A stretch of DNA of 64,000 nt from a bacterium (GTDB lineage: Bacteria; Hydrothermota; UBA3073; JACQXS01; JAGMCI01): the NCBI GenBank assembly GCA_030018315.1, contig JASEGA010000001.1:76673-140672 (forward strand). The letters run 5' to 3'. Every line of letters begins with the position of its first letter. The stretch's first letter is position 1. The notes beneath the pieces are model-generated. The model worked only from the letters and a program-made list of their open reading frames with translations, was not told where the DNA came from and ran no database searches. The position numbers and the translations under genes were made by a program. Shown in pieces: positions 4,198-48,343 of the stretch.

Positions 4198-4225
4198 AAT
4201 ATAATCTAAATAAAATTTGTGTCAA
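4198..4225 (-). promoter_or_regulatory. Promoter of the phosphate transporter gene
   Basis: On the minus strand TTGACA (4225-4220), a 16-bp spacer and TATATT (4203-4198) form a near-consensus sigma70-type promoter. The -10 box ends 8 nt before the ATG, so the predicted start point is at or next to the start codon. Confidence 0.65.
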
Positions 4226-4260
4226 GTGAATTAAAATTGAGTTCTAAAACTCTGGGCAAG

Positions 4261-4437
4261 TTTTTCTTGCTTTGTTGAATAATTCGCTTTACAAAACTTG
4301 CAACACCTTGATTGACACCGATTTATGAGATTCTTCATTTCGTTCAGAATGACAATGTCAAAATTGTCTAAAACCAAGTCAGAGGTTGAAAATCAAAGGT
4401 GCCAAAAATGTTTATTCAACAAAGCAAATTTTTCTTG
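4261..4437. mobile_element. MITE-like element with 16-bp terminal inverted repeats
   Basis: Positions 4267-4282 (TTGCTTTGTTGAATAA) and 4412-4427 are a perfect 16-bp inverted repeat about 160 bp apart. The ends resemble the GGCTTTGTTGAATAA-type termini of IS903-group (IS5 family) insertion sequences. A 9-bp direct repeat (TTTTTCTTG) occurs at 4261-4269 and 4429-4437, though it is not flush with both inverted repeats. There is no transposase frame inside; instead a dispersed-repeat copy lies at 4327-4354. The right flank merges into the -35 box of the fabH promoter. The rest of 4190-4474 holds nothing else recognisable. Confidence 0.5.
4327..4354 (-). repeat. Dispersed repeat, TGTCATTCTGA...GAATCTC type
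   Basis: On the minus strand this reads TGTCATTCTGA, a variable core and GAAGAATCTC. It is the same family as the copies at 6575-6602, and is related in its ends to those at 46515-46544 and 54305-54342. Such short repeats are dispersed in many environmental bacterial genomes; function unknown. Confidence 0.6.
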
Positions 4438-4463
4438 ACAGCAGTTTATTTTCTCCTTATAAT
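4435..4463 (+). promoter_or_regulatory. Consensus promoter of fabH
   Basis: TTGACA at 4435-4440, a 17-bp spacer and TATAAT at 4458-4463 match the sigma70 consensus exactly. The fabH ATG is at 4475, leaving a predicted 5' leader of only about 5 nt and no Shine-Dalgarno sequence. Confidence 0.8.
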
Positions 4464-4474
4464 TTAAAATTCTA

Positions 4475-5455
4475 ATGCGTAATATAAAGATTATAGGTAC
4501 TGGTTCATATGTGCCACCAAAAGTTATAACTAATTTTGATTTAGAGAAGATGGTTGATACCTCAAATGATTGGATAATAGAGCGGACTGGTATTCGTGAG
4601 CGTCATATAGTAGAAGGTGATACCGCGACATCTGATTTAGTAGTTCAGGCGGCTAATAATGCATTAGCGCAAGCGGGTCTAAAAGCTACTGCCCTTGACG
4701 CACTTATAGTAGCGACTGCGAGTCCTGATACTGCGTATCCGTCAACTGCTTGTTGGGCACAGAAAGGTTTGGGTATCCCTGGTATAGCTGCATTTGATGT
4801 AGGGGCTGCGTGTTCAGGCTTTCTTTATGGGCTTGAGGTAGCGGCGGGGCTTATAGAGTCTGGCAATTACAAGAATGTTCTCGTTTGCGGTGCTGAGGTT
4901 ATGTCAAGGGTTGTTAACTGGGAGGACAGGAACACTTGTGTATTATTTGGTGATGGTGCTGGTGCGTGCATAGTTACAAGTAGTGATGGTAGTAGTGGCA
5001 TTTTATCTTCTTATTTAGGTGCGGATGGCACTATTGGGCACTTACTTGTTCAGCCAGCGGGTGGGACGCGGCTGCCAGCTTCTTCTGAGACTGTTACTAA
5101 TAAGCTTCATTCAGTGCATATGGAGGGTAGGGAGGTATTTAAGCATGCAGTGCGTGCTATGGGTAATTCAGCTATCCGTGTACTAAAATTGGCAAATCTA
5201 AAAAATGAAGACATAGCCCTGTTTATTCCACATCAAGCTAACTTACGGATAGTGGAGGCGACTTGTAAGCGTGTAAAGATACCGATGGATAAGGCGTATA
5301 TAATAATAGACAAGTATGGCAATGTGCCAGCAGCTTCTATTCCACTGGCACTGGATGAGGCAAACAGGGTTGGCAGGATAAAGCGTGGCGATATAATCCT
5401 ATTAGTTGCTTTTGGGGCTGGGTTTACTTGGGGTGGGATGGTATTGAAATGGTGA
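4475..5455 (+). CDS. fabH: Beta-ketoacyl-ACP synthase III (FabH)
   Basis: This 326-residue protein starts fatty-acid elongation by condensing acetyl-CoA with malonyl-ACP. The catalytic triad is visible: Cys113 in GAACSGFLYGLE, His253 in IPHQAN and Asn283 in YGNVPAAS. The N-terminal DWIIERTGIRERH and the C-terminal GAGFTWGG are family hallmarks, and the length is normal for FabH. The gene is not followed by other fab genes (fabD, fabG, acpP), so it is probably monocistronic. It has an exact consensus promoter whose -10 box ends 11 nt before the ATG, suggesting a nearly leaderless mRNA. Confidence 0.96.
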   Translation: MRNIKIIGTGSYVPPKVITNFDLEKMVDTSNDWIIERTGIRERHIVEGDTATSDLVVQAANNALAQAGLKATALDALIVATASPDTAYPSTACWAQKGLGIPGIAAFDVGAACSGFLYGLEVAAGLIESGNYKNVLVCGAEVMSRVVNWEDRNTCVLFGDGAGACIVTSSDGSSGILSSYLGADGTIGHLLVQPAGGTRLPASSETVTNKLHSVHMEGREVFKHAVRAMGNSAIRVLKLANLKNEDIALFIPHQANLRIVEATCKRVKIPMDKAYIIIDKYGNVPAASIPLALDEANRVGRIKRGDIILLVAFGAGFTWGGMVLKW

Positions 5456-5534
5456 CTGGTGAATGGGCAAGAGTCTAAAAGTCTAAGAAATGATAAATAA
5501 TAAATACCGAGAGAATGACGAAAGGATATGTGCG

Positions 5535-6530
5535 ATGTATAAGTTAATTGTTAAAGTTGTAATAGCAACTGTGATTGGGCTACCATTATTGTCTAATCCA
5601 ATAGTTGCTGGCTGGGAAAGGACATATGGTGGAATTAATAGCGACGTTGGCTGCTCAGTGGTACAGGCTCAAGATGGTGACTATATTATAGCTGGAGCAA
5701 CCAGTTCATACGGTGTGGGAGGAGAAGATGTTTGGTTAATAAAAACAGATGCAACCGGTAATATACTTTGGACTAGAACATATGGTGGAGCTGGTAACGA
5801 TGTTGGCTTGTCGATCATGCAAACACTGGATAGTGGCTATATTGTAGCTGGAATAACTAATTCATATGGTGCAGGACTGGATGATATCTATCTAATAAAG
5901 ACAAATTCAAATGGTGATTTAGTGTGGACAAAGACATATGGTGGAACTTATGAAGATGTTGGTCTTTCAATAGCTCACACCTTGGACGAAGGCTGTATTA
6001 TAACTGGAAGCACTGAATCGTATGGTGAAATATGGGGGGATGTTTGGTTGGTAAGGATAGGTGCAGCTGGTGATACACTCTGGACAAGAACATACGGTGG
6101 AAACAGAGAAGATTGCGGCCTCTCAGTGAGACAGACATTGGATGGTGGTTATATTGTAACAGGACGGACTGCTTCATACGGTGCGGGAGCGGTTGATGTC
6201 TATCTAATAAAGGTTGATGCTGAAGGAGTAGAAGAAAGTTCAAATGTCAAAGCTCAAAGTTCAAATCTTGAAATCTATCCTAATCCATTTACTTCAGTAG
6301 TTAGTGTCAAGTGGTCAGGGATTAGTGAAAGCCAAGGAATTGGCATACAAATTTATGATTTAAGTGGTAGGTTGGTAAAAACACTAATCACTAACCACTC
6401 TCCACTGACCACTGCTGTTACTTGGGATGGTACAGATGCGAGTGGAAAAGAGGTTGAGTCAGGTGTATACTTCTGCCAGCTTAAGGTTGGTGATAATAGT
6501 GTGATAAAGAAACTGATTATGATGAGGTGA
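5535..6530 (+). CDS. Exported protein with four ~53-residue repeats and a C-terminal sorting domain
   Basis: The chosen ATG at 5535 follows a GAAAGGA ribosome-binding site at 5519-5525 and begins a signal peptide (MYKLIVKVVIATVIGLPLL); an in-frame ATG at 5490 would add 15 hydrophilic residues. After the signal, four repeats of about 53 residues follow, each with the pattern TYGG...DVG.S..QT.D.GYI..G.T.SYG....D..LIK (a beta-propeller-like repeat common in secreted proteins of this kind). The C-terminus carries a FlgD-like sorting domain with YPNPF, IYDLSGRLVK, WDGTDASG and SGVYF, the usual signal for outer-membrane secretion. A linker rich in Ser/Asn (SSNVKAQSSN) is encoded by an A/T-rich repeat-like stretch. 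Role on the cell surface is unknown. Confidence 0.8.
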   Translation: MYKLIVKVVIATVIGLPLLSNPIVAGWERTYGGINSDVGCSVVQAQDGDYIIAGATSSYGVGGEDVWLIKTDATGNILWTRTYGGAGNDVGLSIMQTLDSGYIVAGITNSYGAGLDDIYLIKTNSNGDLVWTKTYGGTYEDVGLSIAHTLDEGCIITGSTESYGEIWGDVWLVRIGAAGDTLWTRTYGGNREDCGLSVRQTLDGGYIVTGRTASYGAGAVDVYLIKVDAEGVEESSNVKAQSSNLEIYPNPFTSVVSVKWSGISESQGIGIQIYDLSGRLVKTLITNHSPLTTAVTWDGTDASGKEVESGVYFCQLKVGDNSVIKKLIMMR

Positions 6531-6574
6531 GTCGGTTATGTCCGTTAGGTCGGTTAAGTAGATTTTTTACTGAT

Positions 6575-6602
6575 GAGGTTCTTCGCTTTACTCAGAATGA
6601 CA
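6575..6602 (-). repeat. Dispersed repeat, TGTCATTCTGAG type
   Basis: The minus strand reads TGTCATTCTGAG, a short variable core and GAAGAACCTC, the same family as the copy at 4327-4354. It lies in the 268-bp gap between the exported repeat protein and korD. Confidence 0.55.
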
Positions 6603-6621
6603 AAAAAGAGGGTATAATGAT

Positions 6622-6802
6622 ATGGTTGGGATAAGGTTTAACATGGGGCAGGATGGTGCTAAAATGGTAGGGTGTAATTCAAATTAAAAATCAAATATTA
6701 AATATGCAGATTGCAAATTACAAATTACAGATTACAAATTAAAAAGCTATGGTTGAGATAAGGTTTCACATGTGGCAGTATGATATTAAAGTAGTGAGAT
6801 GA
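6622..6802 (+). repeat. Duplicated 53-bp segment with tiny ORFs and AT-rich short repeats, upstream of korD
   Basis: Two imperfect direct copies of about 53 bp lie at 6622-6674 and 6749-6801. Both begin with ATG and encode similar peptides, MVGIRFNMGQDGAKMVG and MVEIRFHMWQYDIKVVR. The second is a complete 17-residue ORF whose TGA (6800-6802) overlaps the korD ATG (6799-6801) as ATGA. The start MVEIRFH resembles the first residues of PorG/KorC gamma subunits. Between the copies (about 6711-6744) lies a run of 8-9 bp units such as CAAATTACAGATTA. No clear promoter for the kor operon was found here. Confidence 0.5.
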
Positions 6803-7029
6803 AAGAGTCAACTACTAAACTGAAGGCAAAAGTAACAATTTACGAAGAGCTTTGTAAGGGGTGTGGCTACTGTATTGATGCCTGTCCTAAGAAGATACTT
6901 GAGATGACATCCAAATTTAATTATAGTGGCTATCATCCACCACACTGCACGAATATAGAAGAATGTATTGGGTGTGGTCTGTGCTATCAGGTATGCCCGG
7001 AGATAGCGATTGAGGTTGAAAAGTTATGA
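6799..7029 (+). CDS. korD: 2-oxoacid:ferredoxin oxidoreductase, ferredoxin-like delta subunit
   Basis: A 76-residue 2[4Fe-4S] ferredoxin-like subunit that carries electrons out of the oxidoreductase complex. Both cluster motifs are intact: Cys19, 22, 25, 29 (CKGCGYCIDACP) and Cys56, 59, 62, 66 (CIGCGLCYQVCP). It is the first gene of a tight korD-korA-korB-korC operon; its stop overlaps the next ATG. A 17-residue ORF directly upstream overlaps its start by ATGA, so its translation may be coupled to that peptide. Confidence 0.9.
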   Translation: MKESTTKLKAKVTIYEELCKGCGYCIDACPKKILEMTSKFNYSGYHPPHCTNIEECIGCGLCYQVCPEIAIEVEKL

Positions 7030-8135
7030 CTACAAAAGATATAGTGAGGTATAAGACAGGTGAAAAGATATTAATAAAGGGAAATGAAGCTCTTGCAGAA
7101 GGTGCTGTTCGTGCTGGGTGCAGATTTTTTGCTGGCTATCCTATTACACCACAAAATGAGATTCCTGAGTACCTTTCCTGGCGTTTATTTGAGGTAGGTG
7201 GTACTTTTATTCAGTCAGAATCTGAGATTGCTGCTGTTAATATGATATTTGGTGCTGCTGCTTGTGGTGTCCGGGGGATGACATCTTCATCTGGGTGCGG
7301 TATTAGCTTGAAACAGGAAGGTATTTCGTATATATCATCAGCTGAACTCCCTTTTTTTTATGCCAACATCGTTCGCGGTGGTCCTGGACTTGGCAACATT
7401 GCACCTGCACAAAGTGATTATTTTCAGGCAACTCGTGGTGGTGGTCATGGGGACTATCGTGTGATTGTGTTGGCGCCCGGTTCAGTGACTGAGATGGGTA
7501 ATTTTCCAAAGTTAGCATATGACTTGGGAGATAAATACCGTAATCCGTGTATGGTATTGGCAGATGGCTTGTTAGGTCAGATGATGGAGCCGATGCAGTT
7601 TGAGTTTGACTGGGTAGACTTAGATAAGTTGCCTCCAAAGGATTACATAACGACGGGCTGCAAGGGTAGAAAGCGTAGGATTATCAACACACTGTATATG
7701 GCACCGGGTAGACTTGAAGAACACAACTGGCACCTGTATGAGAAATACCAGAAAATAGAGACAAATGAGGTACGATATGAGGAATTGGAACTGGACGATG
7801 CTGAGCTCGCAATCATTGCCTACGGGACTTCAGCTCGGATATCAAAGGATGCAGTGATCAAGGGTAGGAAAAAGGGAATAAAGATTGGACTCTTCAGGCC
7901 AATAACTTTATGGCCGTTTCCTAAAGTGGCTATAAATACACTGGCTGATAGGGTGAAGAAATTTTTAGTTGTTGAGATGAATATGGGGCAGATGATTGAA
8001 GATGTCCAGATATCTGCTCGTGGCAAGGCTAATATTCACTTTCTTGGTCATCCTGGCGGTGGTCTGCCGACAGGAGATGAAGTCTTGGGTAAAGTAGAAG
8101 AAATATTAAGCACCTCCACAGGATACTGCGTATAA
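7026..8135 (+). CDS. korA: 2-oxoacid:ferredoxin oxidoreductase alpha subunit
   Basis: This 369-residue subunit forms the transketolase-like pyrimidine-binding part of the enzyme that converts 2-oxoglutarate (or a related 2-oxoacid) and CoA to the acyl-CoA, CO2 and reduced ferredoxin. Visible family features are [20 protein letters not shown] and [13 protein letters not shown] near the N-terminus, the [17 protein letters not shown] segment, and a C-terminal domain with [13 protein letters not shown]. The ATG overlaps the korD stop (ATGA). Substrate could be 2-oxoglutarate or branched-chain 2-oxoacids (VorB-like); sequence alone does not decide. Confidence 0.9.
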
Positions 8136-8136
8136 T

Positions 8137-8952
8137 ATGGGCAAAATTTACAAAAAGCCGGCAAGCATGACAGGAATTACGATGCGTTACTGTCCAGGTT
8201 GTGGTCACGGTATCGTGCATCGGCTTATAGCAGAGGTGATTGATGAGCTGGGTATTCGTGAGCGTACTACTGGGATAGCACCTGTGGGCTGTTCTGTATT
8301 TTTAGATGAATACTTAGATTGTGACATGATACAGGTTCCTCATGGACGAGGTTGTGCTGCTGCAACCGGGATGAAACGGGTATGCCCAGATTTAGTTGTC
8401 TTCTCCTATCAAGGTGACGGTGATTTGGCTGGCATCGGGACAGCTGAAACCATTCATGCTGCTGCCAGAGGCGAAAACTTTACAGTAATATTCATCAACA
8501 ATGCTATTTATGGGATGACTGGTGGGCAGCAAGCACCAACAACTATGCCGGGTCAGAAGACAAGCACCAATCCTTTTGGTCGGGACCCAAAGGTTGCTGG
8601 CTATCCTATCAGGGTGTGTGAACTTCTCTCCTCACTTGACGGTCCTGTCTATTTGGAGCGGACTACTGTGAACAGTGTTTCCAATGTGCTGAAAACGAAG
8701 CGTGCTCTGAAGAAGGCATTTCAGATACAACTTGATAGACTAGGTTTTACACTGGTTGAAATTCTATCACCATGTCCTACGGGTTGGGGTGTAACCCCTA
8801 AGAAGGCGTGCGAGTTTATAGAGGAGAAGATGAGTAAATATTATCCGCTGGGTGTGTATAAAGATTTGACGCCAGCAAAAGCAGAAATAAGAATTTATGA
8901 GGAAAAAATACCACCAGAAAAACCGTCAGAAATAGAGGGTATCGGATTTTAG
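8137..8952 (+). CDS. korB: 2-oxoacid:ferredoxin oxidoreductase beta subunit (TPP-binding)
   Basis: A 271-residue subunit carrying the thiamine-diphosphate site. The TPP motif [17 protein letters not shown] and the following [16 protein letters not shown] are typical of Kor/Vor beta subunits; [15 protein letters not shown] near the N-terminus is the conserved cysteine motif. It lies 1 bp after korA and 10 bp before the gamma subunit, so all four genes should be co-transcribed. Confidence 0.92.
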
Positions 8953-8962
8953 TATTAAAGGA

Positions 8963-9502: not shown

Positions 9503-9550
9503 GTGTTTATTATTTATATCTCTGGAAAATATAGGGTATTATGGATGACT

Positions 9551-9911: not shown

Positions 9912-9989
9912 TTTTCCACCTCCTTTTTAATATTTAATTTCTCGACCTTTAAATATATTGTGTCCCGAAGCCGATTGCGTATAACTATG

Positions 9990-10061
9990 TGGAGGTGAGG
10001 GGATTCGAACCCCTGCCCCCCTGCTTGCAAAGCAGATGCTCTCCCTCTGAGCTACACCCCC
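9990..10061 (-). tRNA. tRNA-Ala (anticodon TGC)
   Basis: The minus strand folds as a complete tRNA: acceptor GGGGGTG/CACCTCC, D arm with AGCTCAGAGGGAGAGC, anticodon loop CTTTGCAAG giving TGC, and T arm with GGTTCGAATCC. The CCA end is not encoded. It lies downstream of 16S and tRNA-Ile in the same orientation, but a protein gene separates it from tRNA-Ile. Confidence 0.95.
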
Positions 10062-10110
10062 ATATCTCTAAAAATAAATATAATCTATAAACCAAAAATT
10101 GTCAATAAAA

Positions 10111-10144
10111 AAAGCTGGGCACCTGTTAAAGGTAACCCAGCTTT
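10111..10144. terminator. Strong hairpin terminator
   Basis: AAAGCTGGG (10111-10119) and CCCAGCTTT (10136-10144) form a perfect 9-bp stem extended inward by ACCT/AGGT. Read on the minus strand it follows the stop of the porin-like gene and ends in a T run (complement of the A run at 10107-10113). Confidence 0.8.
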
Positions 10145-10163
10145 AAATTTCTTAATTCCTATA

Positions 10164-11369
10164 TTACTTACCGAATGTGTATGTCAAACTCGCCAGTGCA
10201 GCAGCACATGGGGTTCCACTGATGAGATAAGGGCCTGAGAAGAAGAATGCATTTGGAATCTGGACATCAAATGTGAAGTCACCTAATTTGGCACAGGCAC
10301 CAAAAGCAAGATTGAACGGAGCATTGAAAGTGGTTATTGTAGTAGCCTTGTCTTTATCTGCTCCACTTTGAGGTGTTACATCCATTTTTACTGGATTCAA
10401 GTATTTCCAAAAACCGACTCTCGCCCCAAGCCAGCTCCAAATTTGAGCCTCAGCCCCAAATACAATACCGGGTAGAGTAGTTATGGTGACAGCAGTCTTG
10501 CTCTTTGTAGTATCTTCAGGGGTAGTAGTCTCCTTGTCCATCCTGCCAACGAGCCCAAATAGGAGTGTACCATTTTCAAAAATAGGATGAGTACCACCAA
10601 CTCCTAATGTCACATCCATTAACTTAAGCTCTTCAGATGTAGTATCAATCGTTGCCCTCTCCCAGCTTGCATCTCCTATATTGAGGTGTAACAGAGAGAT
10701 AAGAGTTTTTTCACTCATCGTAAAGAAAGCTCTGGTGTCTATACCGTAGAAGAGTTTACCTTTAGCATTCCATTTGTATTTGACTCCTTCCAAATCGCAC
10801 TCCTCAAGTGACCAATTATGAGTACGAATCCCAAGTGCAAAATCAACAAAGTTCTTTTCTCCGAGAGCAAACTTTACCCCAGGTCTTATACCAATTATGC
10901 CCATTGATTCTTTCATATCCATAGTATCTCCATGAGGGACATCTATACTAATAGCATTACTAGCTAATTCTACATCAAGTCCAGCAGCAAGTGGGCCAAA
11001 TTCAGCTCCTCCAACGAACTCTAACTGAGGTAAGGGGGCAACAAAGCCTGGCGTGAATTGGGCGCCTGAATTTGTAATAGCAGTATTTACAAGAGCAGGA
11101 AAAGCACTCCTCTGTAAAGCTACTCCATAATTCACAGGTAGTATTCTACCCTTAAAGAAAGCACCTAAAGTTGGGAAAGCACCTGTAGCACCAAGTTCAC
11201 CTATTACATTACCTGCATAAGCATTCACCCATGCCGGATACCCGTAAATATTAGAGTCGTCAATTAAGAAATCAGACCAGCCTCCCATAGTAGCGACACG
11301 TGTATTTGTTGCAAATCCCATTGTTGCAACAAATATTACTGCTATCACAAGCAATGATACCTTTTTCAC
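10164..11369 (-). CDS. Outer-membrane beta-barrel (porin-like) protein of unknown function
   Basis: A 401-residue exported protein. A signal peptide (KKVSLLVIAVIFVATMGFA) is followed by NTRVATMGGWSDFLIDDSN, an N-terminal motif seen in many PorV/OmpP1-like barrels, and then alternating polar/hydrophobic strands. The C-terminus ends in LASLTYTFGK, a beta-signal-like ending with a penultimate aromatic. The GTG start (complement 11367-11369) has a strong AGGAGG 5 nt upstream. The gene sits between tRNA-Ile and tRNA-Ala in the 16S transcription unit; it also has a possible own promoter (TTGACT at 11430-11425, TAATAA at 11407-11402) and its own terminator. It may be very strongly expressed. No specific substrate can be assigned. 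Confidence 0.75.
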   Translation of the reverse strand: MKKVSLLVIAVIFVATMGFATNTRVATMGGWSDFLIDDSNIYGYPAWVNAYAGNVIGELGATGAFPTLGAFFKGRILPVNYGVALQRSAFPALVNTAITNSGAQFTPGFVAPLPQLEFVGGAEFGPLAAGLDVELASNAISIDVPHGDTMDMKESMGIIGIRPGVKFALGEKNFVDFALGIRTHNWSLEECDLEGVKYKWNAKGKLFYGIDTRAFFTMSEKTLISLLHLNIGDASWERATIDTTSEELKLMDVTLGVGGTHPIFENGTLLFGLVGRMDKETTTPEDTTKSKTAVTITTLPGIVFGAEAQIWSWLGARVGFWKYLNPVKMDVTPQSGADKDKATTITTFNAPFNLAFGACAKLGDFTFDVQIPNAFFFSGPYLISGTPCAAALASLTYTFGK

Positions 11370-11466
11370 TTTCTCCTCCTTTCTTTGGAACTGATCCCAA
11401 TTTATTATTAGGACCGAAGCCCAAAGTCAATGGGCCTAATCTCATGCAGTCATCTTCCCAATTTAC

Positions 11467-11540
11467 TGGGCCTGGGTGGATTCGAACCACCCACCTTACG
11501 GTTATCAACCGTACGCTCTAACCAACTGAGCTACAGGCCC
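11467..11540 (-). tRNA. tRNA-Ile (anticodon GAT)
   Basis: The minus strand gives a complete cloverleaf: acceptor GGGCCTG/CAGGCCC, D arm TAGCTCAGTTGGTTAGAGC, anticodon loop TTGATAA giving GAT, T arm GGTTCGAATCC. It lies about 150 bp downstream of 16S, the usual place in a bacterial rRNA spacer. Confidence 0.96.
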
Positions 11541-11691
11541 CTATCGGGGACTCTAACCGCTCCCTACGAACGTTTAGAAAGTTTTTGGGAACGTAGCTAA
11601 AAACTGTAGGCCCAAAATAAAATATAAATAAAGCGCGCACCACTTTTTTGGTCAAAATAATTTTCGTTAAACCTAAAAACCAATCTCCGTA

Positions 11692-13195
<1,504 letters not shown>

Positions 13196-13298: not shown

Positions 13299-14291
13299 TT
13301 AGCTCAATCCAATTATTCCTCTTATTTCTTTTTCAAGTGTAGAACTAATTTCTGGGTGCTGTATTAAGTAATCTATTGCATTTTCCCTACCTTGCCCAAT
13401 TTTTTCACCCTTGTAAGAAAACCAAGTCCCAGCCTTCTCTACAAGATTATGCTTAACTGCAAGATCAAATATATCACCAACCATTGAAATCCCTTTTCCA
13501 TAAAGGATATCAAATTCTGCACTCTTAAATGGGGGCGCAAGCTTGTTTTTGACAACCATAACCTTTATATGGTTACCTATCCTTTCTTCTCCCTTTTTAA
13601 TAGGGGTGACACTTTTTATTTCAAGTCTCACAGATGAATGAAATTTAAGTGCCAATCCACCAGGAGTTGTCATCGGGTTACCCAAAAGTACGCCAATTTT
13701 GTATCTTATCTGATTTATAAAGATGGCGCAAGTCTTTGATTTTGATACTACTCCTGTAAGTTTTCTAAGTGCTTGCGACATAAGTCTTGCCTGTAATCCA
13801 ATGAAAGATTCGCCTATCTCACCCTCAATTTCAGCTCTTGGGACAAGCGCAGCCACAGAGTCAATAACTATGACATCAACTGCTCCACTCCTTGTGAGAG
13901 TCTCTGCAATCTCAAGTGCCTCCTCCCCTGTATCTGGCTGTGATATAAGTAGGTTATCAACATCTACACCTAAATTTTTAGCATATACTGGGTCAAGTGC
14001 ATGCTCAGCATCAATAAATGCGCCTACCCCTCCCTTTTTTTGGGCTTCTGCTAAAATATGTAACCCAAGTGTAGTCTTACCACTTCCCTCTGACCCAAAT
14101 ATCTCTACTGTCCTGCCACGTGGTATGCCTCCTATTCCAAGTGCTGCATCAAGCGAAAGTGAACCAGTTGAGATTGCATCTTTACACACCTTAATCTCCT
14201 TCTCACCAAGTCTCATCACAGCACCCTTACCAAAGCTCTTCTCTATTTGGCGCAAAGCCTCATTTATTGCACGCTCTCTTGTCTCTTCCAT
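13299..14291 (-). CDS. recA: Recombinase RecA
   Basis: A 330-residue RecA, the strand-exchange ATPase of homologous recombination and SOS induction. Walker A GSEGSGKT is at about residues 66-73, Walker [16 protein letters not shown] follows, and [22 protein letters not shown] covers the L2 DNA-binding loop region. The C-terminal acidic tail found in longer RecA proteins is absent. It lies 49 bp downstream of lnt, but that gap contains a near-consensus promoter with the -10 box ending 9 nt before the ATG, so recA can be transcribed alone and possibly without a leader. No LexA-type operator was recognised. Confidence 0.97.
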
Positions 14292-14300
14292 TTCAATAAA

Positions 14301-14329
14301 AATATATGTAAAAATTGTCTAAATGTCAA
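14301..14329 (-). promoter_or_regulatory. recA promoter
   Basis: TTGACA (14329-14324), 17 bp, TATATT (14306-14301) on the minus strand; 9 nt separate the -10 box from the recA ATG, predicting a leader of about 3 nt. Confidence 0.7.
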
Positions 14330-14340: not shown

Positions 14341-15774
14341 TTATTTTTTGGACATAAATCTCAAATTAATAAGCAAAAATAGTAGTCCCACACACAGCCA
14401 CGCAAACCAGTCACCCCATCTTGCATAAAAAGTAAGGTTCTTCCTTAACGGGATATCTCTTATAATAATTTGCTGTGTGAATATTTTGGTAATCTCTTTT
14501 ACTTCACCCTTTGGAGTCACAAAATATGAGATACCCGTGTTGCCACATCTCACAACTGGTATCCTGTATTCTACTGCTCTCAAAACTGCCTGCTGTGCAT
14601 GCTGGTATGGGCCTGCAGTCCTACCAAACCATGAATCCTCAGTTATATTCACAAGCACTTGTGCCCCATTGCGGACAAATTTTCTTGAAATTCTTGGGAA
14701 TATAGATTCAAAACAAATAAGAACAGAGAATTTAAATTTGGGAAGCTCAAAAACTTTGTAATTCTTACCGGGTGAGAAATTACCCTGTCCAAAATTTAGT
14801 CTTTGTAGCCCCGTAAATATTTCATCAAAAGGTAAGCGTTCACCGAATGGGACTAAATAAATTTTGTCGTAAAATCCCTTAACCCTATATTTAGGGACAA
14901 CGAGAAAACAGGAATTGTAAGTCTTTGCTTGCTTCTCACTCAACTCTAATCTCATACCACCCATGATTACTGGGATATTCAATGAATCTACAATTTTAAA
15001 AACCTTTTGCCCTAAATCATTAAGGTTGAGATACCCAGGTATTGCAGTCTCGGGCCAGACAAGTAAATCACACGTCCCTACTTTTTCACTTAACTTATAT
15101 AACAATAATAATCTGTAGTCAAAAGAGTCCTCCTCTCGCTTTATTTCAGGTACTACATTTGGCTGGATAACACCAATCCTAACTTCTGGAGCAGACTCTT
15201 TTTGGTCTAATGCGAGTCTACCTTGAAGCCATACAATGCAAACAACAATTGCTGCACCGTATAGGTATCGCAATTTTCTACTCACCATTGTGTAAAAAAT
15301 GAGCGAGTTTATAAGCAACACAAAAAATGTTATCCCTGGGAGTCCGATAAATTCGGCGAACTGTACAAATTGTAAATAATGGGTAAGTGCATAGCCCACG
15401 CTTCCCCACGGGAAACCAAGTTCAGGTGATAATGAACGGATGAACTCTACACTCGTCCATGCTATTGGGATAAAGATGAAGCTTCTAATTCTATTTGAAA
15501 ACCATGCAGAAAATCCAAATATAAGTCCAAAGTATATGAATAAAAGTAATACACCTGCCCATAACCAGACTCTAAAAGGTACCTCAAGCACAAGTATCCA
15601 GTAAAGTAGACCCACAGAAAAGACAAAACCGGATATAAAACCGTATTTGAAAGCATTATTAGATTTATAGGAGACAAAAATGAGTGGTATAAAGCTGACA
15701 AACACAACAAAAGGAGCACAGTAAAAAGAGAGGAGCAATAAAATAGAGGTCAATAAACTCATAAAGACGAACAT
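14341..15774 (-). CDS. lnt: Apolipoprotein N-acyltransferase
   Basis: A 477-residue inner-membrane enzyme that adds the third acyl chain to lipoproteins. About six N-terminal transmembrane segments precede a nitrilase-type periplasmic domain. The catalytic triad candidates are visible: Glu in VWPETAIPGY, Lys in YDKIYLVPFGE and Cys in VLICFESIF; a final transmembrane helix ends the protein. The presence of Lnt supports a diderm cell envelope. The start is chosen at the ATG 7 nt downstream of a strong promoter; no Shine-Dalgarno precedes it. Confidence 0.94.
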   Translation of the reverse strand: MFVFMSLLTSILLLLSFYCAPFVVFVSFIPLIFVSYKSNNAFKYGFISGFVFSVGLLYWILVLEVPFRVWLWAGVLLLFIYFGLIFGFSAWFSNRIRSFIFIPIAWTSVEFIRSLSPELGFPWGSVGYALTHYLQFVQFAEFIGLPGITFFVLLINSLIFYTMVSRKLRYLYGAAIVVCIVWLQGRLALDQKESAPEVRIGVIQPNVVPEIKREEDSFDYRLLLLYKLSEKVGTCDLLVWPETAIPGYLNLNDLGQKVFKIVDSLNIPVIMGGMRLELSEKQAKTYNSCFLVVPKYRVKGFYDKIYLVPFGERLPFDEIFTGLQRLNFGQGNFSPGKNYKVFELPKFKFSVLICFESIFPRISRKFVRNGAQVLVNITEDSWFGRTAGPYQHAQQAVLRAVEYRIPVVRCGNTGISYFVTPKGEVKEITKIFTQQIIIRDIPLRKNLTFYARWGDWFAWLCVGLLFLLINLRFMSKK

Positions 15775-15781
15775 AAGCTAA

Positions 15782-15810
15782 ATAATATTACTATATCAAC
15801 TTATTGTCAA
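15782..15810 (-). promoter_or_regulatory. lnt promoter
   Basis: TTGACA (15810-15805), 17 bp, TATTAT (15787-15782) on the minus strand; the -10 box ends 7 nt before the lnt ATG, so transcription would start at the start codon itself. Confidence 0.7.
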
Positions 15811-35567: not shown

Positions 35568-36644
35568 TTAAAGCAGACTTTCGGGCATGCGTACTCCCAA
35601 TCCTTCCTCATCAGTTACACGGTTCTCTCCATTTTCTGTAACTACTCCACCTTCCACTATATCCTTTTTTAACATCAAATGACCATCTAAGTCAGCATAT
35701 TTCACATTTTTCATCGCCAACCCTAAATGTGTAGCTGCTGAAATGCCAATCTTTGTCTCTGTCATACAACCAATCATACAGGGGATGCCAGCCGCCTCTG
35801 CTATTGTTATAATCTTCATCCCTTCCATTATACCACCCGATTTCATAAGCTTTATGTTAAATAAGTCGCATACCTCCTGTCTTATTAAATTGATTGCATC
35901 TTCTTTTGAATGCAAACTCTCATCCACCATTATAGGAATGCATGTTTTAGCTCGCACAGTTTTAAGTCCTTGAATATCACGGTAAGCTACAGGTTGCTCA
36001 ATAAACTCAATATCATAGCGCTCAAGTTTCTTTAATACATCTATTGCATCACTCACTTCATAACCTTGATTTGCATCTACTCTTAATTTTATTGAATAGC
36101 CAATCTCCTCCCTTATAGCTTTTATTTTTTCTACATCTTCTACTGGATTTTCACCTATTTTTACCTTTATAACTTTTACTCCATTTCTCACAAACCTCTT
36201 AGCCTCCTCTACAGTAGGTATGATTGGTTTTATACCTATAGTAATTGAAGTCGTTATTTTATCTCTGAATCCGCCTAATAGATTCTTAAGAGGTAGATGA
36301 GCATATTTACCTAATATATCATGTAGTGCAATATCAATTGCACATTTGGCACTTGAATTATGTAAGATAATTGAGTCGATTTCAGCCATTATATTTTCTA
36401 TAAGAATTGGATTCTTACCTATTATTGTAGGCCTTATCTTGTTCTCTATAACATCAATAACTGTACCTTGAGTCTCACCTGTCACTGTTGCTGAAGGTGA
36501 TGCCTCACCGAGCCCAAATATTCCTGCATCTGTCTCTATTTTTACAATTACACCATCATAGGTAACATCTGTGCCAAGTGCAATTTTAAACGGCTGCTTC
36601 AACAGTATAGTTACTGGGTTTGTAATTAAATTTGTGATATTCAT
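35568..36644 (-). CDS. Dipeptide epimerase (L-Ala-D/L-Glu epimerase type, enolase superfamily)
   Basis: A 358-residue enolase-superfamily enzyme. The acid/base lysine motif VIKVKIG, metal ligands in RVDANQGY, IEQPV and VDESLHS, and the opposite lysine in NIKLMKSGG are all present. GCMTETKIGISAATHL and YADLDGHLML match the dipeptide epimerase group that isomerises L-Ala-D-Glu from murein to L-Ala-L-Glu. It would take part in peptidoglycan recycling. Other specificities within the group are possible. It is divergent from the Wzz-like gene and appears monocistronic with a leaderless-type promoter. Confidence 0.88.
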   Translation of the reverse strand: MNITNLITNPVTILLKQPFKIALGTDVTYDGVIVKIETDAGIFGLGEASPSATVTGETQGTVIDVIENKIRPTIIGKNPILIENIMAEIDSIILHNSSAKCAIDIALHDILGKYAHLPLKNLLGGFRDKITTSITIGIKPIIPTVEEAKRFVRNGVKVIKVKIGENPVEDVEKIKAIREEIGYSIKLRVDANQGYEVSDAIDVLKKLERYDIEFIEQPVAYRDIQGLKTVRAKTCIPIMVDESLHSKEDAINLIRQEVCDLFNIKLMKSGGIMEGMKIITIAEAAGIPCMIGCMTETKIGISAATHLGLAMKNVKYADLDGHLMLKKDIVEGGVVTENGENRVTDEEGLGVRMPESLL

Positions 36645-37386: not shown

Positions 37387-37387
37387 T

Positions 37388-42778: not shown

Positions 42779-42831
42779 ACATAACTTGCTCTTTCTTTTA
42801 ACTCTTTGTCTTCATTCTCGCTTCCCATTTC

Positions 42832-43725: not shown

Positions 43726-43734
43726 ATTTAGCAT

Positions 43735-46497
43735 TCATAATTTAGAATCCAGCATTTTTCCTATATAGGTTTGGACATAGCTCTTAAAACTACTTAAGTG
43801 CTCTTCAGGTATTTGGGGAAATTGTTTATACAAACACTCTTTTAATTCATTAAGCCATTCTTTTTTACCACTACACTCATACATAAACCAATAACCTTTC
43901 CACATAATGGGTAAAGATTCCGTCTTGCTACCAATCTCAATCATTCTTTTAGCATAGTTCTCAATTTTAGCAATCTCCTCCTTTTTATTGCTTTTTGCAA
44001 GTATCTTACACAACCGCAAGCAAGCAGTTGCTTCACTCATTTGCTCACCAAGTTCAATTGCTTTGTTCAATACTTCCTCAGCAAACCCGATTGCATTTTT
44101 AAAGTCGCCGTCTAATTCATAAAGTTTAGACTCAGCAAGTCTTAAATCAAGCATAGGTTTTATACTCTTTAGCTCAGCTACAGTTTTTTCTACCTTTTGT
44201 TTCAAAGCTTTTGCACTACCCAAATCACTTTTTCCTATATGGGCTTGAATCATCATTATAAGTGTGGATGCAATTCCACCCTTTGCACCAATTTGCTCAA
44301 ATAGTTTTAGCGATTGCTGAAAGTAACTCAATGCCTCTTTGTAGTTACCTAAATCCTGATACATGCCACCAATCTCCATAATTGAATCTGCTTCGCCTCT
44401 CTTACCACCCGTTTCTTGGTATATTTTCAATGATTGCTGAAAGTAAATAAGTGCTTTCTTATAGTTACCTAACAAAGAATATACAGTACCAATGTTATTG
44501 AAAGCCAGTGCTTCACCTGCTCTATTACCTATCTGCTGACTTATCATCAGTGATTGCTGATAACAGGTCAATGCCTCTTTATAATTGCTCAGATTATCAT
44601 ATATATTACCAATGTTATTGAAAGCCATTGCCTCATTTACTCTATCACCTATCTGCTGGCTTATCTTCAGTGATTGCTGATAATAGGTGAATGCTCCTTT
44701 GTAGTCACTTAAATTAAAATATATAATCCCAATATTATTGAGACAGTTCGCCTCACCTTGTCTATCACCTATCTCTGGTCTTATTTTTAGTGATTGTTGA
44801 AAGTAATTTAGTGCTTCATTATACTCACCCAGATTGTAATATACAGCACCAATGTTATTGAGAGAATAGGCCTCATTCTGCCTATCACATATTTCACGGG
44901 ATATTTTCAATGATTGTTGAAAGTAATTCAAAGCCTCAACAGAGTTTCCCAAATGAAAGTATGCAATACCAATCCGATTGAGTGACTCTGCTTTACCTTT
45001 CTCACATTTCAGCTCTATGTATATATCTAATGCACTTCTGGCTAATTTTAGCGATTCTTCATATTTGCTAAGTGCAGTGAAAATAATAGCTTTGTGTGTA
45101 AGACAGTCTGCCTCTGTTTTCCTATTGTTCGTCTTATTTGCTATAAGAAGCGCTTCATCTATGTCTACAAGTGCAGGTTGAGTTTGCCCTATTAGAGTAT
45201 AGACTTTTGAGCGTTCTTTTAAAACGCTAATTTGTAATTCAGTGTCCACGATTAGCTTACCTTCTATACCCACCACAGAGAGGATTCTGGTATAGTATTC
45301 TATCTCTTGTTGATTAGCGTATATAGCTCTTGCCTGTTTAGCTGCCTTTTCTGTATAGTCAAGTGCCTTTTGCCAGTCTTCACCTTTAAAATAATGCCAT
45401 GAAAGTAAACCGTAGTAATCATCAAGTCTGTCCTTGAACAACACCTCTGTACATTCGCCAACCCTACGATGTAGCTCAATTCGCCTCTTTTTTAAAAGGC
45501 TGTTGTAAGCTACCTCTTGAGTCAGTATATGTTTGAACAGATATTCCAATTCTACTAATATTTGCTTTAAAATAAATTGCCTATCTTCCAATAGGTTGAG
45601 TGATTTATCAAGTTCTTCTGAGATATCACCTCGAGTTGCATCAGATGCATACTTTAGAACCCGATATAAGAAGCTATGTCCTATAACAGATGCGGTCTGT
45701 AAAACTTGTTTAGTATTGTCATCAAGTTTATCTATTCTTGAAGCAATCACACTATGGACAGTATCCGGGACATCAATTTCTTTTATATCAATAGTCAACT
45801 GCCATAATCCGTTTTCTTCTCTTAATACCTTATAGTCAATAAGAGAACGGATTAGTTCTTCTACATAAAATGGGTTACCTTCAGATTTATCAAGAATTAG
45901 TTTCTTTAAACTATCAGGTACACTCGGTATGTCAAGAAGATTATTTATTAACCCGTTATTATCATCTTCAGGCAGTGGCGTAAGGTTTATTTCAACATAG
46001 TTATCCGGTATTCTTTTCTTAGCACACTCCATCAAGTGGACACAGCTACCTTCTTTTTTTGACCTAAAAAGAGAAATAATAAGAAACGGTGCAGATATAA
46101 CGCCATTTAACAGAAATTCAAGTAAATCAAGTGATGCTGTATCTATCCAGTGTAGGTCTTCAAGTACAAGAATCAATGGACATTTCTTACTTATTGTAAT
46201 GAATAAATCACGAAGTGACACAAATACCTCAAGTTTTAATGTTTCAGAATTAAGATATTTTACTTTATCTATATATTTATTATCAAGTTTAAGTGAAAGA
46301 AAAGTGCAAAGATATGGGATTAGCTCATTTGAGCGTTCACCAAACAGGGATGCGAGACAACTGGTTAGTTTATCTTTTATCTGAGCTTCATTATCTGATT
46401 CTGTTATCTCAAGATAAGACTTTACAATCTCAAGAAATGGCCAGTATGGGATTGATTTACCATAAGAGAGACAGTGACCTTCAAGCCAACAAATCAT
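43735..46497 (-). CDS. STAND-type ATPase with TPR repeats, N-terminally truncated
   Basis: A 920-residue frame. It begins at ICWLEGHCLSYGKSIPYWPF, the segment that normally follows Walker A in adenylate-cyclase-linked ATPases, so the P-loop itself is missing. Walker B is CPLILVLEDLHWIDTASLDL, and GNPFYVEELIRSLIDY marks the winged-helix junction. From about residue 370 a series of TPR units runs to the end, many nearly identical (NIGxVYxNLGxYxEALxYFQQSLKI). Its ATG overlaps the TGA of the preceding fragment as ATGA. Its last residues (MLDSKL) are encoded by a dispersed AT-rich repeat. Without a P-loop it cannot be a normal ATPase; it is likely the 3' part of a fused or deleted gene. Confidence 0.75.
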   Translation of the reverse strand: MICWLEGHCLSYGKSIPYWPFLEIVKSYLEITESDNEAQIKDKLTSCLASLFGERSNELIPYLCTFLSLKLDNKYIDKVKYLNSETLKLEVFVSLRDLFITISKKCPLILVLEDLHWIDTASLDLLEFLLNGVISAPFLIISLFRSKKEGSCVHLMECAKKRIPDNYVEINLTPLPEDDNNGLINNLLDIPSVPDSLKKLILDKSEGNPFYVEELIRSLIDYKVLREENGLWQLTIDIKEIDVPDTVHSVIASRIDKLDDNTKQVLQTASVIGHSFLYRVLKYASDATRGDISEELDKSLNLLEDRQFILKQILVELEYLFKHILTQEVAYNSLLKKRRIELHRRVGECTEVLFKDRLDDYYGLLSWHYFKGEDWQKALDYTEKAAKQARAIYANQQEIEYYTRILSVVGIEGKLIVDTELQISVLKERSKVYTLIGQTQPALVDIDEALLIANKTNNRKTEADCLTHKAIIFTALSKYEESLKLARSALDIYIELKCEKGKAESLNRIGIAYFHLGNSVEALNYFQQSLKISREICDRQNEAYSLNNIGAVYYNLGEYNEALNYFQQSLKIRPEIGDRQGEANCLNNIGIIYFNLSDYKGAFTYYQQSLKISQQIGDRVNEAMAFNNIGNIYDNLSNYKEALTCYQQSLMISQQIGNRAGEALAFNNIGTVYSLLGNYKKALIYFQQSLKIYQETGGKRGEADSIMEIGGMYQDLGNYKEALSYFQQSLKLFEQIGAKGGIASTLIMMIQAHIGKSDLGSAKALKQKVEKTVAELKSIKPMLDLRLAESKLYELDGDFKNAIGFAEEVLNKAIELGEQMSEATACLRLCKILAKSNKKEEIAKIENYAKRMIEIGSKTESLPIMWKGYWFMYECSGKKEWLNELKECLYKQFPQIPEEHLSSFKSYVQTYIGKMLDSKL

Positions 46498-46790
46498 ATT
46501 TCCTTGATTTTTATTGTCATTGCGAGCGATAGCGAAGCAATCTCTTGAATCATCTTAGAGAGCTCAGTTATAGAAAGTAGCTGTAATTGTATCTCTTTTG
46601 ATAGTTTGATGATATCGGATAGCTCTGTCCTAGTAGCTTCTCTGATAACCCCAAATATTAAGATACGAAATATGTGAATATTTTGTACCAAATAGTGAAG
46701 TAGAGAAAGACTTGCCTCATCTACTAAATGCAAGTTGTCTAAAAATAGGATAACAGGAGACTCCTCTGAGATAGTTGTAAGTAAACCCAT
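46494..46790 (-). pseudogene. Middle fragment of the disrupted GGDEF-ATPase gene
   Basis: This piece carries the Walker B and sensor part of the first ATPase: PVILFLDNLHLVDEASLSLL, then RILIFGVIREATRTEL and SITELSKMIQEI. It continues, one frame shifted, from the fragment at 46813-47916. In the same frame upstream of its ATG the sequence reads SKAYLFEGV, confirming the shift. Its last residues (ASLSLAMTIKIKEI) are translated from the dispersed repeat at 46515-46544, beyond which the second ATPase frame starts. Confidence 0.7.
46515..46544. repeat. Dispersed repeat TGTCATTGCGAG...GAAGCAATCTC at a gene-fusion junction
   Basis: The plus strand reads TGTCATTGCGAG, a core CGATAG, then CGAAGCAATCTC. 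The same ends occur at 54305-54342 with a different core. It lies exactly where the first ATPase reading ends and the second begins. Confidence 0.7.
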
Positions 46791-46812
46791 AACTCCTTCA
46801 AAAAGATAAGCT

Positions 46813-47916
46813 TTAGAAGCATTCGGGGACTGTCCCCGAATGGCTCAGTAAAAATGGAGGTACACGGCCGAGTGCCTTTTGAGCATTTTTTGAAAGTCTC
46901 CCAGACTTGTAAAGGTTTGTAAAAATAATTTTAAACGGTTCATATGGAGTAGATGGTAAAGCGTAACAGGAAGTGGCAAGAATTTGAGCGCCCTTAAATT
47001 TAACTATATCTAAAAATTCGTTAGCTAATCTTGTTTTGCCTACCCCTGCAGCTCCACTTATGAAAATTACCTTTCCATCACCCTGCATTACTTGTTTGAA
47101 CACATCTTCTAATTCTTTTAACTCTCTTTCTCTCCCTATCAACTTTGGAGAATGAATAGATAGATGCACTTTCTCGGGAATACCTATCCCTTTACGAGCT
47201 AATTCAAGTAAGAGTTGAGACGTATTTGCATCCTCCGGATATGCAGCTATACCAGTATTTACGGTAAGTCTGATACCATGCTTAAAAGTATAATCTTTAA
47301 TTATTCCTTTGAGTCTTTCCCCTACACTCAACGCCTCTTCTTTTTCTATTCCGGTGAGCAATAATGCAAACTCATCTCCATTGTATCTGAACAGCATATC
47401 TTCTGGACGAGTATTGGTTTTTAAAATCTTAGCTAACTGGATAAGGATTTCATCTCCTGCAGAAGAGCCAAACGAAATGTTTACATCGTTGAATTTGTTG
47501 ATATCTAAGAAAATTAGCGGCATAGCCAATTTCTTATATTCAGCCTCGCGAATTTTCACTTCTAAATAAGAATTAAGATACTTATAGTCGTGAAGTCCTG
47601 TTAGGGAATCGGTAGTTTCTTCTGGCTTTTCTATTTCAACTTCATGTAGAAGTGGTGGCGTAACTTTCTCCTCCATAATGATACGCTCTGTTGCCTCAAT
47701 TCCCTTTAGTGTTGCAATAGCATGTTCAAGATATTGCTCAGCTAAATGAGGAGAAATCTGTTCAATAGTAGCAGTAACTTTGGGTGGCTCTTTTTTGGCT
47801 GGACCTAATTCTTTTGCTCTCTTAATACCCTGCTCAAAGTATAATTCAGTGAGCTCATTTTTCACTGCTTGATTATCAGGAAATTTTTGTGCTATATATT
47901 CATAAGCCTCAATCAC
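46813..47916 (-). CDS. GGDEF domain plus AAA P-loop fragment of a disrupted signalling gene
   Basis: A 367-residue piece. Residues about 1-110 are helical with a TPR-like start (AYEYIAQKFPDNQ). Residues about 110-240 form a diguanylate-cyclase-like domain (TDSLTGLHDYKYLN, PLIFLDINKFNDVNISFGSS, FRYNGDEFALLLTG); the signature is NGDEF rather than GGDEF, so activity is unsure. Then comes LIGRERELKELEDVF and the Walker A GAAGVGKTRLANEF. The frame ends at HSGTVPECF, encoded by an inserted palindrome. It is in the same register as the upstream TPR piece, separated by one TAG at 47934-47932. TPR-GGDEF-ATPase was probably one protein. Confidence 0.7.
   Translation of the reverse strand: MIEAYEYIAQKFPDNQAVKNELTELYFEQGIKRAKELGPAKKEPPKVTATIEQISPHLAEQYLEHAIATLKGIEATERIIMEEKVTPPLLHEVEIEKPEETTDSLTGLHDYKYLNSYLEVKIREAEYKKLAMPLIFLDINKFNDVNISFGSSAGDEILIQLAKILKTNTRPEDMLFRYNGDEFALLLTGIEKEEALSVGERLKGIIKDYTFKHGIRLTVNTGIAAYPEDANTSQLLLELARKGIGIPEKVHLSIHSPKLIGRERELKELEDVFKQVMQGDGKVIFISGAAGVGKTRLANEFLDIVKFKGAQILATSCYALPSTPYEPFKIIFTNLYKSGRLSKNAQKALGRVPPFLLSHSGTVPECF
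46820..46842. repeat. Perfect 23-bp palindrome causing a frameshift
   Basis: CATTCGGGGAC (46820-46830), a central T, and GTCCCCGAATG (46832-46842) form a perfect inverted repeat. It lies where the frame of the GGDEF-ATPase gene shifts; before it the protein reads VPPFLLS, after it SKAYLFEGV in another frame. Confidence 0.7.
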
Positions 47917-47931
47917 TTTATCTATATTATT

Positions 47932-48309
47932 CTACATTCGTTTACGGTTTGCATATTCAATAAGGCTGGTCATTGCCACCAACGGTAATCCAAGTTCACC
48001 ATACAGTTTACCCAGTTGATTATATATCTCCACTCTATCAGGTTCTATCCTTAGTATCTTATTCCCAATAGCAATGGCATTATTATATAACGATTCCTTT
48101 TCATAAGCTAACATGGCTTGCTCATAAGAAATGATTGCATCTTCTATCAAGCCTGCTACCCGATAAGTATCCCCCATATTGTTAAGGAGCTCAGGGTCAT
48201 CCAGATGTGTTTCCAGTAGCCGATGATATTCAGAAATTGCTTCCTGATACTTACCTTTACGAATAAGTTCTCTTATCTTTTGCTCTACACGTCCTTTAGT
48301 CGCCATCAT
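47932..48309 (-). CDS. TPR protein, N-terminal fragment of the disrupted GGDEF-ATPase gene
   Basis: A 125-residue TPR protein (KGKYQEAISEYHRLLETH, LLNNMGDTYRVAGLIEDAI, IYNQLGKLYGELGL). It ends ANRKRM then TAG, but the frame continues past the stop as NNIDKVIEAYEYIAQKFPDN, another TPR-like helix pair. It therefore looks like the N-terminus of the longer gene below it. The TPR piece could still work alone. A promoter with the -10 box 7 nt before the ATG precedes it. Confidence 0.7.
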   Translation of the reverse strand: MMATKGRVEQKIRELIRKGKYQEAISEYHRLLETHLDDPELLNNMGDTYRVAGLIEDAIISYEQAMLAYEKESLYNNAIAIGNKILRIEPDRVEIYNQLGKLYGELGLPLVAMTSLIEYANRKRM

Positions 48310-48316
48310 AATGAAC

Positions 48317-48343
48317 TTTATACCCTACTTTGAGTGATGTCAA
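48317..48343 (-). promoter_or_regulatory. Promoter of the TPR-GGDEF-ATPase gene
   Basis: TTGACA (48343-48338), 15 bp, TATAAA (48322-48317) on the minus strand (TAAAGT two bases later gives a 17-bp spacer). It ends 7 nt before the ATG at 48309. Confidence 0.5.

What the first reader, a model, noticed from the sequence alone, without database searches (positions are those of the whole stretch)
4198..48343. Widespread leaderless-type promoters
Six genes show TTGACA-like boxes, 15-17 bp spacers and -10 boxes that end only 6-11 nt before the ATG: fabH (4435-4463), pit (4225-4198), recA (14329-14301), lnt (15810-15782), dipeptide epimerase (36678-36651) and the TPR gene (48343-48317). None has a Shine-Dalgarno in that gap, while internal operon genes and buk do. 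This implies that first genes are read from leaderless mRNAs and internal genes by anti-SD pairing, a mixed strategy. Seen directly: boxes and distances; inferred: start points.
Basis: partly seen in the sequence, partly recalled or inferred. Interest (0 to 1): 0.75.

Follow-up and report, generated by a model that had tools for sequence, protein, structure and literature searches.

The report
Leaderless gene starts in WOR-3 bacteria
In this uncultured bacterium and many sampled relatives, a good share of genes have their promoter so close to the start codon that the messenger RNA should begin at or almost at the AUG, without a ribosome-binding leader; this is a known way of starting genes that I did not find described for this group.

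Summary
All six promoters lie at the stated coordinates: TTGAC(A/T), 15-17 bp spacer, -10 box ending 6-11 nt before ATG, no Shine-Dalgarno (SD) in the gap. It is far above chance. In 460 kb of the 1.95 Mb genome, the arrangement precedes 21 of 172 transcription-unit-first ATG starts (about 0.1 in dinucleotide shuffles) and 0 of 186 operon-internal ones. Genome-wide, the strict pattern occurs 130 times with a 6-10 nt gap, 36 times with a 26-30 nt gap. The organism belongs to candidate division WOR-3. Over 100 WOR-3 genomes near/far is 7082/3195; over 44 other bacteria 707/742. fabH keeps the arrangement in 7 of 8 fabH-bearing genomes of the order; sister family f5 uses SD and GTG.

A mixed strategy exists, but most first genes fail the leaderless test (142 of 176), and SD signal is stronger in those than in internal genes. 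RNA 5' ends are inferred. Leaderless genes are a known kind (PMC3160421). New here: the phylum, no GTG enrichment in pooled data, and excess carried by sites with a -35 box.

The parts
4435..4474 (+). fabH leaderless-type promoter: -35 TTGACA 4435-4440, -10 TATAAT 4458-4463, gap 4464-4474, ATG at 4475
   Evidence: Read; score 14.0; geometry kept in 7 of 18 homologues scored, this one included, all in families f1-f3
4190..4225 (-). pit leaderless-type promoter: -35 4225-4220, -10 TATATT 4203-4198, gap 8, ATG at 4189
   Evidence: score 11.5
14292..14329 (-). recA leaderless-type promoter inside the 49-nt lnt-recA gap: -35 14329-14324, -10 TATATT 14306-14301, gap 9, ATG at 14291
   Evidence: score 12.5; 28 of 29 recA homologues scored hold an SD-like motif, this one does not
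15775..15810 (-). lnt leaderless-type promoter: -35 15810-15805, -10 TATTAT 15787-15782, gap 7, ATG at 15774
   Evidence: score 12.2; not found at the 15 other lnt homologues scored
36645..36678 (-). dipeptide-epimerase-like gene leaderless-type promoter: TTGACT 36678-36673, TATGAT 36656-36651, gap 6, ATG at 36644
   Evidence: score 9.9
48310..48343 (-). TPR gene leaderless-type promoter: TTGACA 48343-48338, TATAAA 48322-48317, gap 7, ATGATG at 48309
   Evidence: score 10.8 in the 17-nt-spacer register
11640..11720 (-). 3' end of the single 16S rRNA found, with canonical anti-SD (ggatcacctcctttct)
   Evidence: the SD route looks intact, so both routes can coexist

Best explanation
These are ordinary sigma-70-type promoters (TTGACA, about 17 bp, TANNNT) set so that the transcription start, normally 6-8 nt past the -10 box (recalled), falls on or within a few nt of the AUG. 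The mRNAs are therefore leaderless or nearly so, and are most likely started by direct binding of a 70S ribosome to a 5'-terminal AUG. Other first genes and many internal genes in the same cell use SD pairing with an intact 16S tail. The signal is present in many, not all, sampled families of candidate division WOR-3 and shifts gene by gene over evolution. Shown: sequences, distances, positional enrichment, start-codon preference, SD absence, conservation of fabH, distribution in 100 genomes. Inferred: RNA 5' ends, 70S initiation.
For: Six sites read directly. ATG peaks 5-12 nt after the -10 box (2.9-fold in a pool of 7 genomes chosen for the signal, 2.5-fold in all 14), while the other 11 triplets tested reach at most 1.26-fold. 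Shuffle test: 11 of 47 divergent, 10 of 125 gapped-first, 2 of 45 intermediate and 0 of 186 internal starts, shuffle means 0.01-0.09. No SD of 5 nt or more in 34 leaderless-type first genes. Whole-genome counts 130 near, 36 far, 13 backwards control. 91 of 100 WOR-3 genomes have near > far, 56 at p < 0.001, none reversed at p < 0.05; of 44 other bacteria 17 have near > far, lowest p 0.07. fabH geometry kept in 7 genomes while spacer and gap sequences differ between genera. Protein homology begins at these ATGs for fabH and recA.
Against: No RNA data. A gap of 11-12 nt (fabH) would leave a leader of about 4-6 nt, so some are 'near-leaderless'. TANNNT alone before ATG is only modestly enriched (19 against 9.8; 34 against 23.3). 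Against 38 near ATGs at score 10 or more, 27 promoters point at an in-frame start of a called gene; the rest may be chance or missed genes. 4-nt SD strings near leaderless-type first genes: 9 of 34, control window 5. Some WOR-3 families show no signal (near/far: f16 25/31, f18 40/42, f21 73/89, f28 14/14, f9 44/41). Samples of G002 (2 against 2.7 expected) and G014 (6 against 5.3) show no enrichment at score 9, nor G027 at score 10 (1 against 1.2). Three internal genes also pass the score, two of them with an SD. recA and lnt are mostly not leaderless in relatives.
Confidence: 0.87

Rival explanations
1. Chance: in AT-rich DNA, -10-like boxes fall before ATG by accident.
For: TANNNT alone is common: shuffles give 9.8 of 47 and 23.3 of 125.
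Against: The full -35/-10/ATG arrangement is more than 100 times above shuffles in first genes (21 against about 0.12). Other triplets do not peak likewise. AT-rich Thermoanaerobacterium and Thermoanaerobacter samples show no ATG peak (4 ATGs at 19 hits against 3.7 expected; 3 at 34 against 7.3).
Confidence: 0.02
2. The promoters are real, but translation starts at a downstream in-frame codon with its own SD; the adjoining ATG is incidental or a short upstream start.
For: The G001 recA locus has a promoter-adjacent ATG and, 16 codons downstream in frame, an SD-preceded ATG that aligns with the start in other species.
Against: 0 of 34 leaderless-type first genes have an SD of 5 nt or more at start candidates within the first 25 codons. 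fabH and recA protein homology begins at the promoter-adjacent ATG.
Confidence: 0.06
3. The mRNAs carry very short leaders (about 3-8 nt) and start through ordinary 30S or S1-assisted initiation rather than true leaderless initiation. (Overlaps with the best explanation, which allows near-leaderless ends.)
For: The ATG peak in this genome lies 8 nt after the -10 box, with some at 10-12.
Against: An SD at its usual spacing does not fit into such a leader, and the gaps lack it (6 of 166 pooled gaps hold any 4-nt SD-like string).
Confidence: 0.2

Closest known systems
Leaderless ('TA-led') genes of bacteria, Zheng et al. 2011 (PMC3160421; abstract, outline and found passages seen)
   Same: A -10-type box about 10 bp upstream of the start codon, no SD, coexisting with SD-led genes; change between TA and SD signals among related species.
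   Different: In the passages seen, the 207 positive genomes (of 953) are listed from other groups plus one unclassified; WOR-3 is not named there. Here the signal is measured promoter-first and with far-gap and out-group controls.
Promoter -10 region adjacent to ORFs in Deinococcus-Thermus (PMC12340547; found passages seen)
   Same: A promoter box just before the ORF gives leaderless mRNA across a phylum.
   Different: There the -10 motif can serve as a promoter, and adding a -35 raises expression. Here the excess of -10 boxes over shuffles (about 9 and 11 sites) equals the number that carry TTGAC at the right spacing (11 and 10).
Leaderless transcripts of mycobacteria (PMC4633059; abstract and found passages seen)
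   Same: Nearly one-quarter of transcripts lack a leader; a mixed strategy.
   Different: Mycobacteria use ATG or GTG. Here GTG is not enriched in 14 pooled WOR-3 genomes (35 seen, 35.9 expected), closer to the AUG preference reported for E. coli (PMC9031893, passages).

Membership tests
Leaderless (TA-led) bacterial genes | -10-type box ending about 5-12 nt before the start codon, enriched over background | tested here: met
Leaderless (TA-led) bacterial genes | No SD sequence before the start codon | tested here: met
   Six gaps read; 0 of 34 leaderless-type first genes with 5 nt or more, 0 four-base hits against 0.9 expected
Leaderless (TA-led) bacterial genes | mRNA 5' end at or within about 5 nt of the start codon | not testable with these tools
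   No transcript data held
Leaderless (TA-led) bacterial genes | Concentrated in first genes of transcription units | tested here: met
   34 of 176 first genes, 3 of 188 internal; 21 of 172 against 0 of 186 for the stricter pattern
Deinococcus-Thermus type (-10 alone) | -10 boxes without a -35 enriched before ORFs | tested here: not met
   Without TTGAC: 8 of 47 and 24 of 125, against all-TANNNT shuffle means of 9.8 (sd 2.8) and 23.3 (sd 4.1) (by subtraction; only exact TTGAC counted as a -35, small excesses could be missed)
Mycobacterial type (ATG or GTG) | GTG enriched at the leaderless position | tested here: not met
   Pooled 35 against 35.9. Family f15 is a possible exception: GTG/ATG near 272/465, G027 sample 7 against 2.3; G027 has 50.5% GC, which may explain part of it

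The most novel reading that the evidence does not exclude
Leaderless transcription is an old, phylum-wide trait of candidate division WOR-3 (Caldifarciminota), lost in a few families, built on canonical -35/-10 promoters and, outside perhaps one family, on AUG only. Genes flip between SD-led and leaderless forms over short evolutionary distances, and the G001 recA locus, with both start types in one frame, would be a caught intermediate in which the leader has become coding sequence.
Probability: 0.55. Interest if true: 0.6.

Novelty: new member of a known kind. Interest (0 to 1): 0.48.

Why it matters
If true, another deep bacterial phylum joins those where leaderless expression is common, here in a low-GC genome with a clear -35 box. 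That makes the signal easy to read and lets gene-by-gene switching between SD-led and leaderless starts be followed through the 34 families sampled. In practice, start-codon calls that rely on SD may be wrong for such first genes in these metagenome-assembled genomes; the promoter-adjacent recA start of G001 lies 16 codons upstream of the SD-preceded one.

Tried and rejected
Plain TANNNT counts by distance to called starts were too noisy in this AT-rich genome, so I turned to promoter-first counts and the full -35/-10 arrangement. E. coli (3 hits at score >= 9 in 150 kb) and Deinococcus deserti plasmid 1 (5 hits in 150 kb) gave too few hits on this score scale to serve as controls, so there is no positive control; 44 other bacterial genomes serve as the negative one. 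lnt homologues did not help: in several relatives the start lies against an upstream gene (my reading), and 16 of 20 loci could be scored. I dropped two fabH loci (a partial hit and a paralogue) and scored 18 of 20; recA was scored at 29 of 30 loci, out of 56 genomes with a match. The plasmid record W01 (1 near, 0 far) is left out of the 44-genome control. The first pooled codon test used 7 of the 14 sampled WOR-3 genomes, chosen because they showed the signal; it was repeated with all 14 for ATG, GTG, TTG and CTG, and the GTG claim rests on the latter. The promoter matrix uses sigma-70 base frequencies that are recalled, not trained on this genome. The gene caller is my own simple one and misses short genes; starts are candidates, not annotations. 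Literature: GeneMarkS-2 is recalled, and StartLink (PMC9581028) was seen only in a listing.
Full report
What was checked. The six promoters were read base by base and all match the finding's coordinates. The gaps between the -10 box and ATG hold no SD-like string. Family searches support the gene names: fabH (TIGR00747), recA (TIGR02012), lnt (TIGR00546), PHO4 transporter (PF01384), a TPR protein, and an Ala-Glu-epimerase-like protein whose best match is below its curated cut-off. fabH, pit and the epimerase gene are divergent first genes; lnt and the TPR gene follow a same-strand gene after a gap; recA follows lnt by 49 nt with its own promoter in that gap.

Which organism. The best recA neighbour in named genomes (81% identical) is 'candidate division WOR-3 bacterium RS_16_8'; other close ones are titled WOR-3, Stahlbacteria or just bacterium. 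A look-up of 'candidate division WOR-3' in the NCBI taxonomy gives phylum Caldifarciminota. The genome held is 1.95 Mb in 74 contigs, with one 16S found that carries a normal anti-SD tail. GC is 37.9% in the window and 37.2% in the 460 kb sample.

Chance level. I took 460,000 bases, 24% of the genome. Around 166 TTGAC-15..18-TANNNT sites, coding ones included, ATG counts rise at 5-12 nt after the box (61 in all) and fall back beyond. With a promoter score and non-coding hits only: at score 10 or more, 78 hits, 38 ATGs at 5-12 nt, 12.4 expected from 15-59 nt; at 12 or more, 32 hits, 20 ATGs, 3.7 expected. GTG, TTG, CTG, ATT and CAT show no comparable rise. Of the 78 hits, 27 point at a promoter-adjacent in-frame ATG of a called gene, 17 at a gene with an SD-like start further on, 16 at a gene with neither, and 18 at no called gene; some of the rest serve tRNA genes by their sequence (my reading). 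TANNNT alone: 19 against 9.8, 34 against 23.3, 6 against 7.4, 28 against 29.4. The excess over shuffles is about the number of sites that also carry TTGAC, so these are -35/-10 promoters rather than bare -10 boxes (inference by subtraction).

Whole genome and phylum. The strict pattern TTGACA-15..18-TANNNT-6..10-ATG occurs 130 times in this genome; with a 26-30 nt gap 36 times; read backwards 13 times. The far gap is a conservative control because leadered SD genes also fall there (SD strings are visible in the listed matches); one promoter can match more than once. In 100 WOR-3 genomes, this one included, the totals are 7082 near and 3195 far; 91 have more near than far, 56 at binomial p < 0.001, none reversed at p < 0.05. 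In 44 genomes from other groups (mostly Bacillota and Pseudomonadota by record title) the totals are 707 and 742; 17 have more near, and the lowest p is 0.07. By family the near/far ratio runs from 6.4 (f20, one genome) and 3.7 (f1, this one) to about 1 or below (f9, f16, f18, f21, f28). In samples of 13 relatives at score 9 or more, 11 have more near ATGs than expected, G002 and G014 do not; at score 10 or more G027 does not either. Samples are small: 5 to 34 hits each except G001 with 105, and in G002, G011 and G014 none of the near ATGs was an in-frame start of a called gene.

Mixed strategy. At score 8 or more with a 5-12 nt gap: 20 of 48 divergent first genes, 14 of 128 first genes after a gap of 60 nt or more, 3 of 45 intermediate, 3 of 188 internal, 2 of 12 edge genes; with a 25-32 nt gap 5, 3, 1, 2 and 0. 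SD runs of 5 nt or more: 0 of 34 leaderless-type first genes (control window 1), 44 of 142 other first genes (control 26), 46 of 185 other internal genes (control 33); runs of 4 or more: 9 of 34 (control 5), 82 of 142 (50), 97 of 185 (84). By position, with one start per gene and ATG starts only, 4-nt SD strings at -16 to -6 (overlapping strings counted) are 84 against 15.0 expected in 93 non-leaderless first genes, 68 against 26.4 in 135 internal genes, and 0 against 0.9 in 34 leaderless-type first genes.

Conservation. Of 18 fabH homologues scored, 7 have a TTGACA promoter ending 6-12 nt before ATG, score 9.8 or more, and no SD. All 7 are in families f1-f3 of this order (G000, G001, G002, G003, G005, G006, G007; G003 and G006 share a genus and the same boxes). 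G004 of the same order has an SD, and G008 gave no match. The sister family f5 uses AAGGA plus GTG in 4 of 4 scored. G018 and G019 have SD-like strings; G016 (promoter score 7.5), G017, G010 and G012 show neither clearly. For recA, 2 of 29 scored homologues have a promoter-adjacent ATG at score 9 or more (G000 and G001), and 28 of 29 (all but G000) have an SD-like string. In G001 both are present: an ATG 6 nt after TATAAT, and 16 codons downstream in frame an ATG after GGAGG. lnt shows the arrangement only here, 1 of 16 scored. pit and the epimerase gene were not sought in relatives; the TPR search gave at best 53% identity to a part of other TPR proteins, and upstream regions were not compared.

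Start codon. In all 14 sampled WOR-3 genomes pooled (467 hits at score 9 or more), ATG at 5-12 nt is 170 against 66.8 expected, GTG 35 against 35.9, TTG 49 against 81.6, CTG 19 against 37.7. Family f15 may use GTG as well: GTG/ATG near 272/465 over 7 genomes, and 7 against 2.3 in G027, whose GC of 50.5% may explain part of it.

Mechanism. A sigma-70 RNA polymerase starts about 6-8 nt after the -10 box (recalled), so these mRNAs should begin within a few nt of AUG. Leaderless mRNAs are said to be started mostly by whole 70S ribosomes at a 5' AUG, which in E. coli is far better than GUG (PMC9031893, passages). That step is inferred here.

Literature. Zheng et al. 2011 (PMC3160421; outline and passages) report leaderless genes in 207 of 953 bacterial genomes, with the highest average share in Deinococcus-Thermus (39.4%) and high ones in Aquificae (26.5%) and Actinobacteria (19.2%). 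PMC12340547 (passages) shows promoter boxes next to ORFs across Deinococcus-Thermus and scanned bacteria widely. PMC5397173 (passages) studied 14 bacterial phyla. Searches for 'leaderless' with 'WOR-3', with 'Stahlbacteria', and for any two of 'leaderless', 'Caldifarciminota' and 'Hydrothermota', and for 'Shine-Dalgarno' with 'WOR-3', found no paper in the held library; most subscription papers, preprints and supplements are outside that search. So the kind is known, and I found no description for this phylum.

Noticed in passing
L085 (G001 recA) and L004: recA carries two in-frame starts: one 6 nt after a TATAAT box and one 16 codons later behind GGAGG; the short segment between looks like a leader turned into coding sequence.
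   Followed up: partly
window 9989-13194: The 16S rRNA is followed by tRNA-Ile, then a 401-codon ORF (10164-11369, minus strand) with no Pfam match at E <= 0.001, then tRNA-Ala; the Rfam scan of the window lists no 23S rRNA, so the rRNA operon looks split.
   Followed up: partly
window 5490-6530: The gene after fabH encodes a protein with a type IX secretion C-terminal sorting domain (TIGR04183, PF18962).
   Followed up: no
WOR-3 family f15 (G027, G033, G046, G054, G072, G074, G078): The GTG/ATG ratio at the leaderless position is 0.58, higher than in every other family but f9 (one genome without near/far excess), hinting that GTG may also serve there; higher GC may explain part.
   Followed up: partly
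WOR-3 families f9, f16, f18, f21, f28: No excess of promoter-adjacent ATG; these lineages may lack leaderless genes or use another promoter consensus.
   Followed up: no
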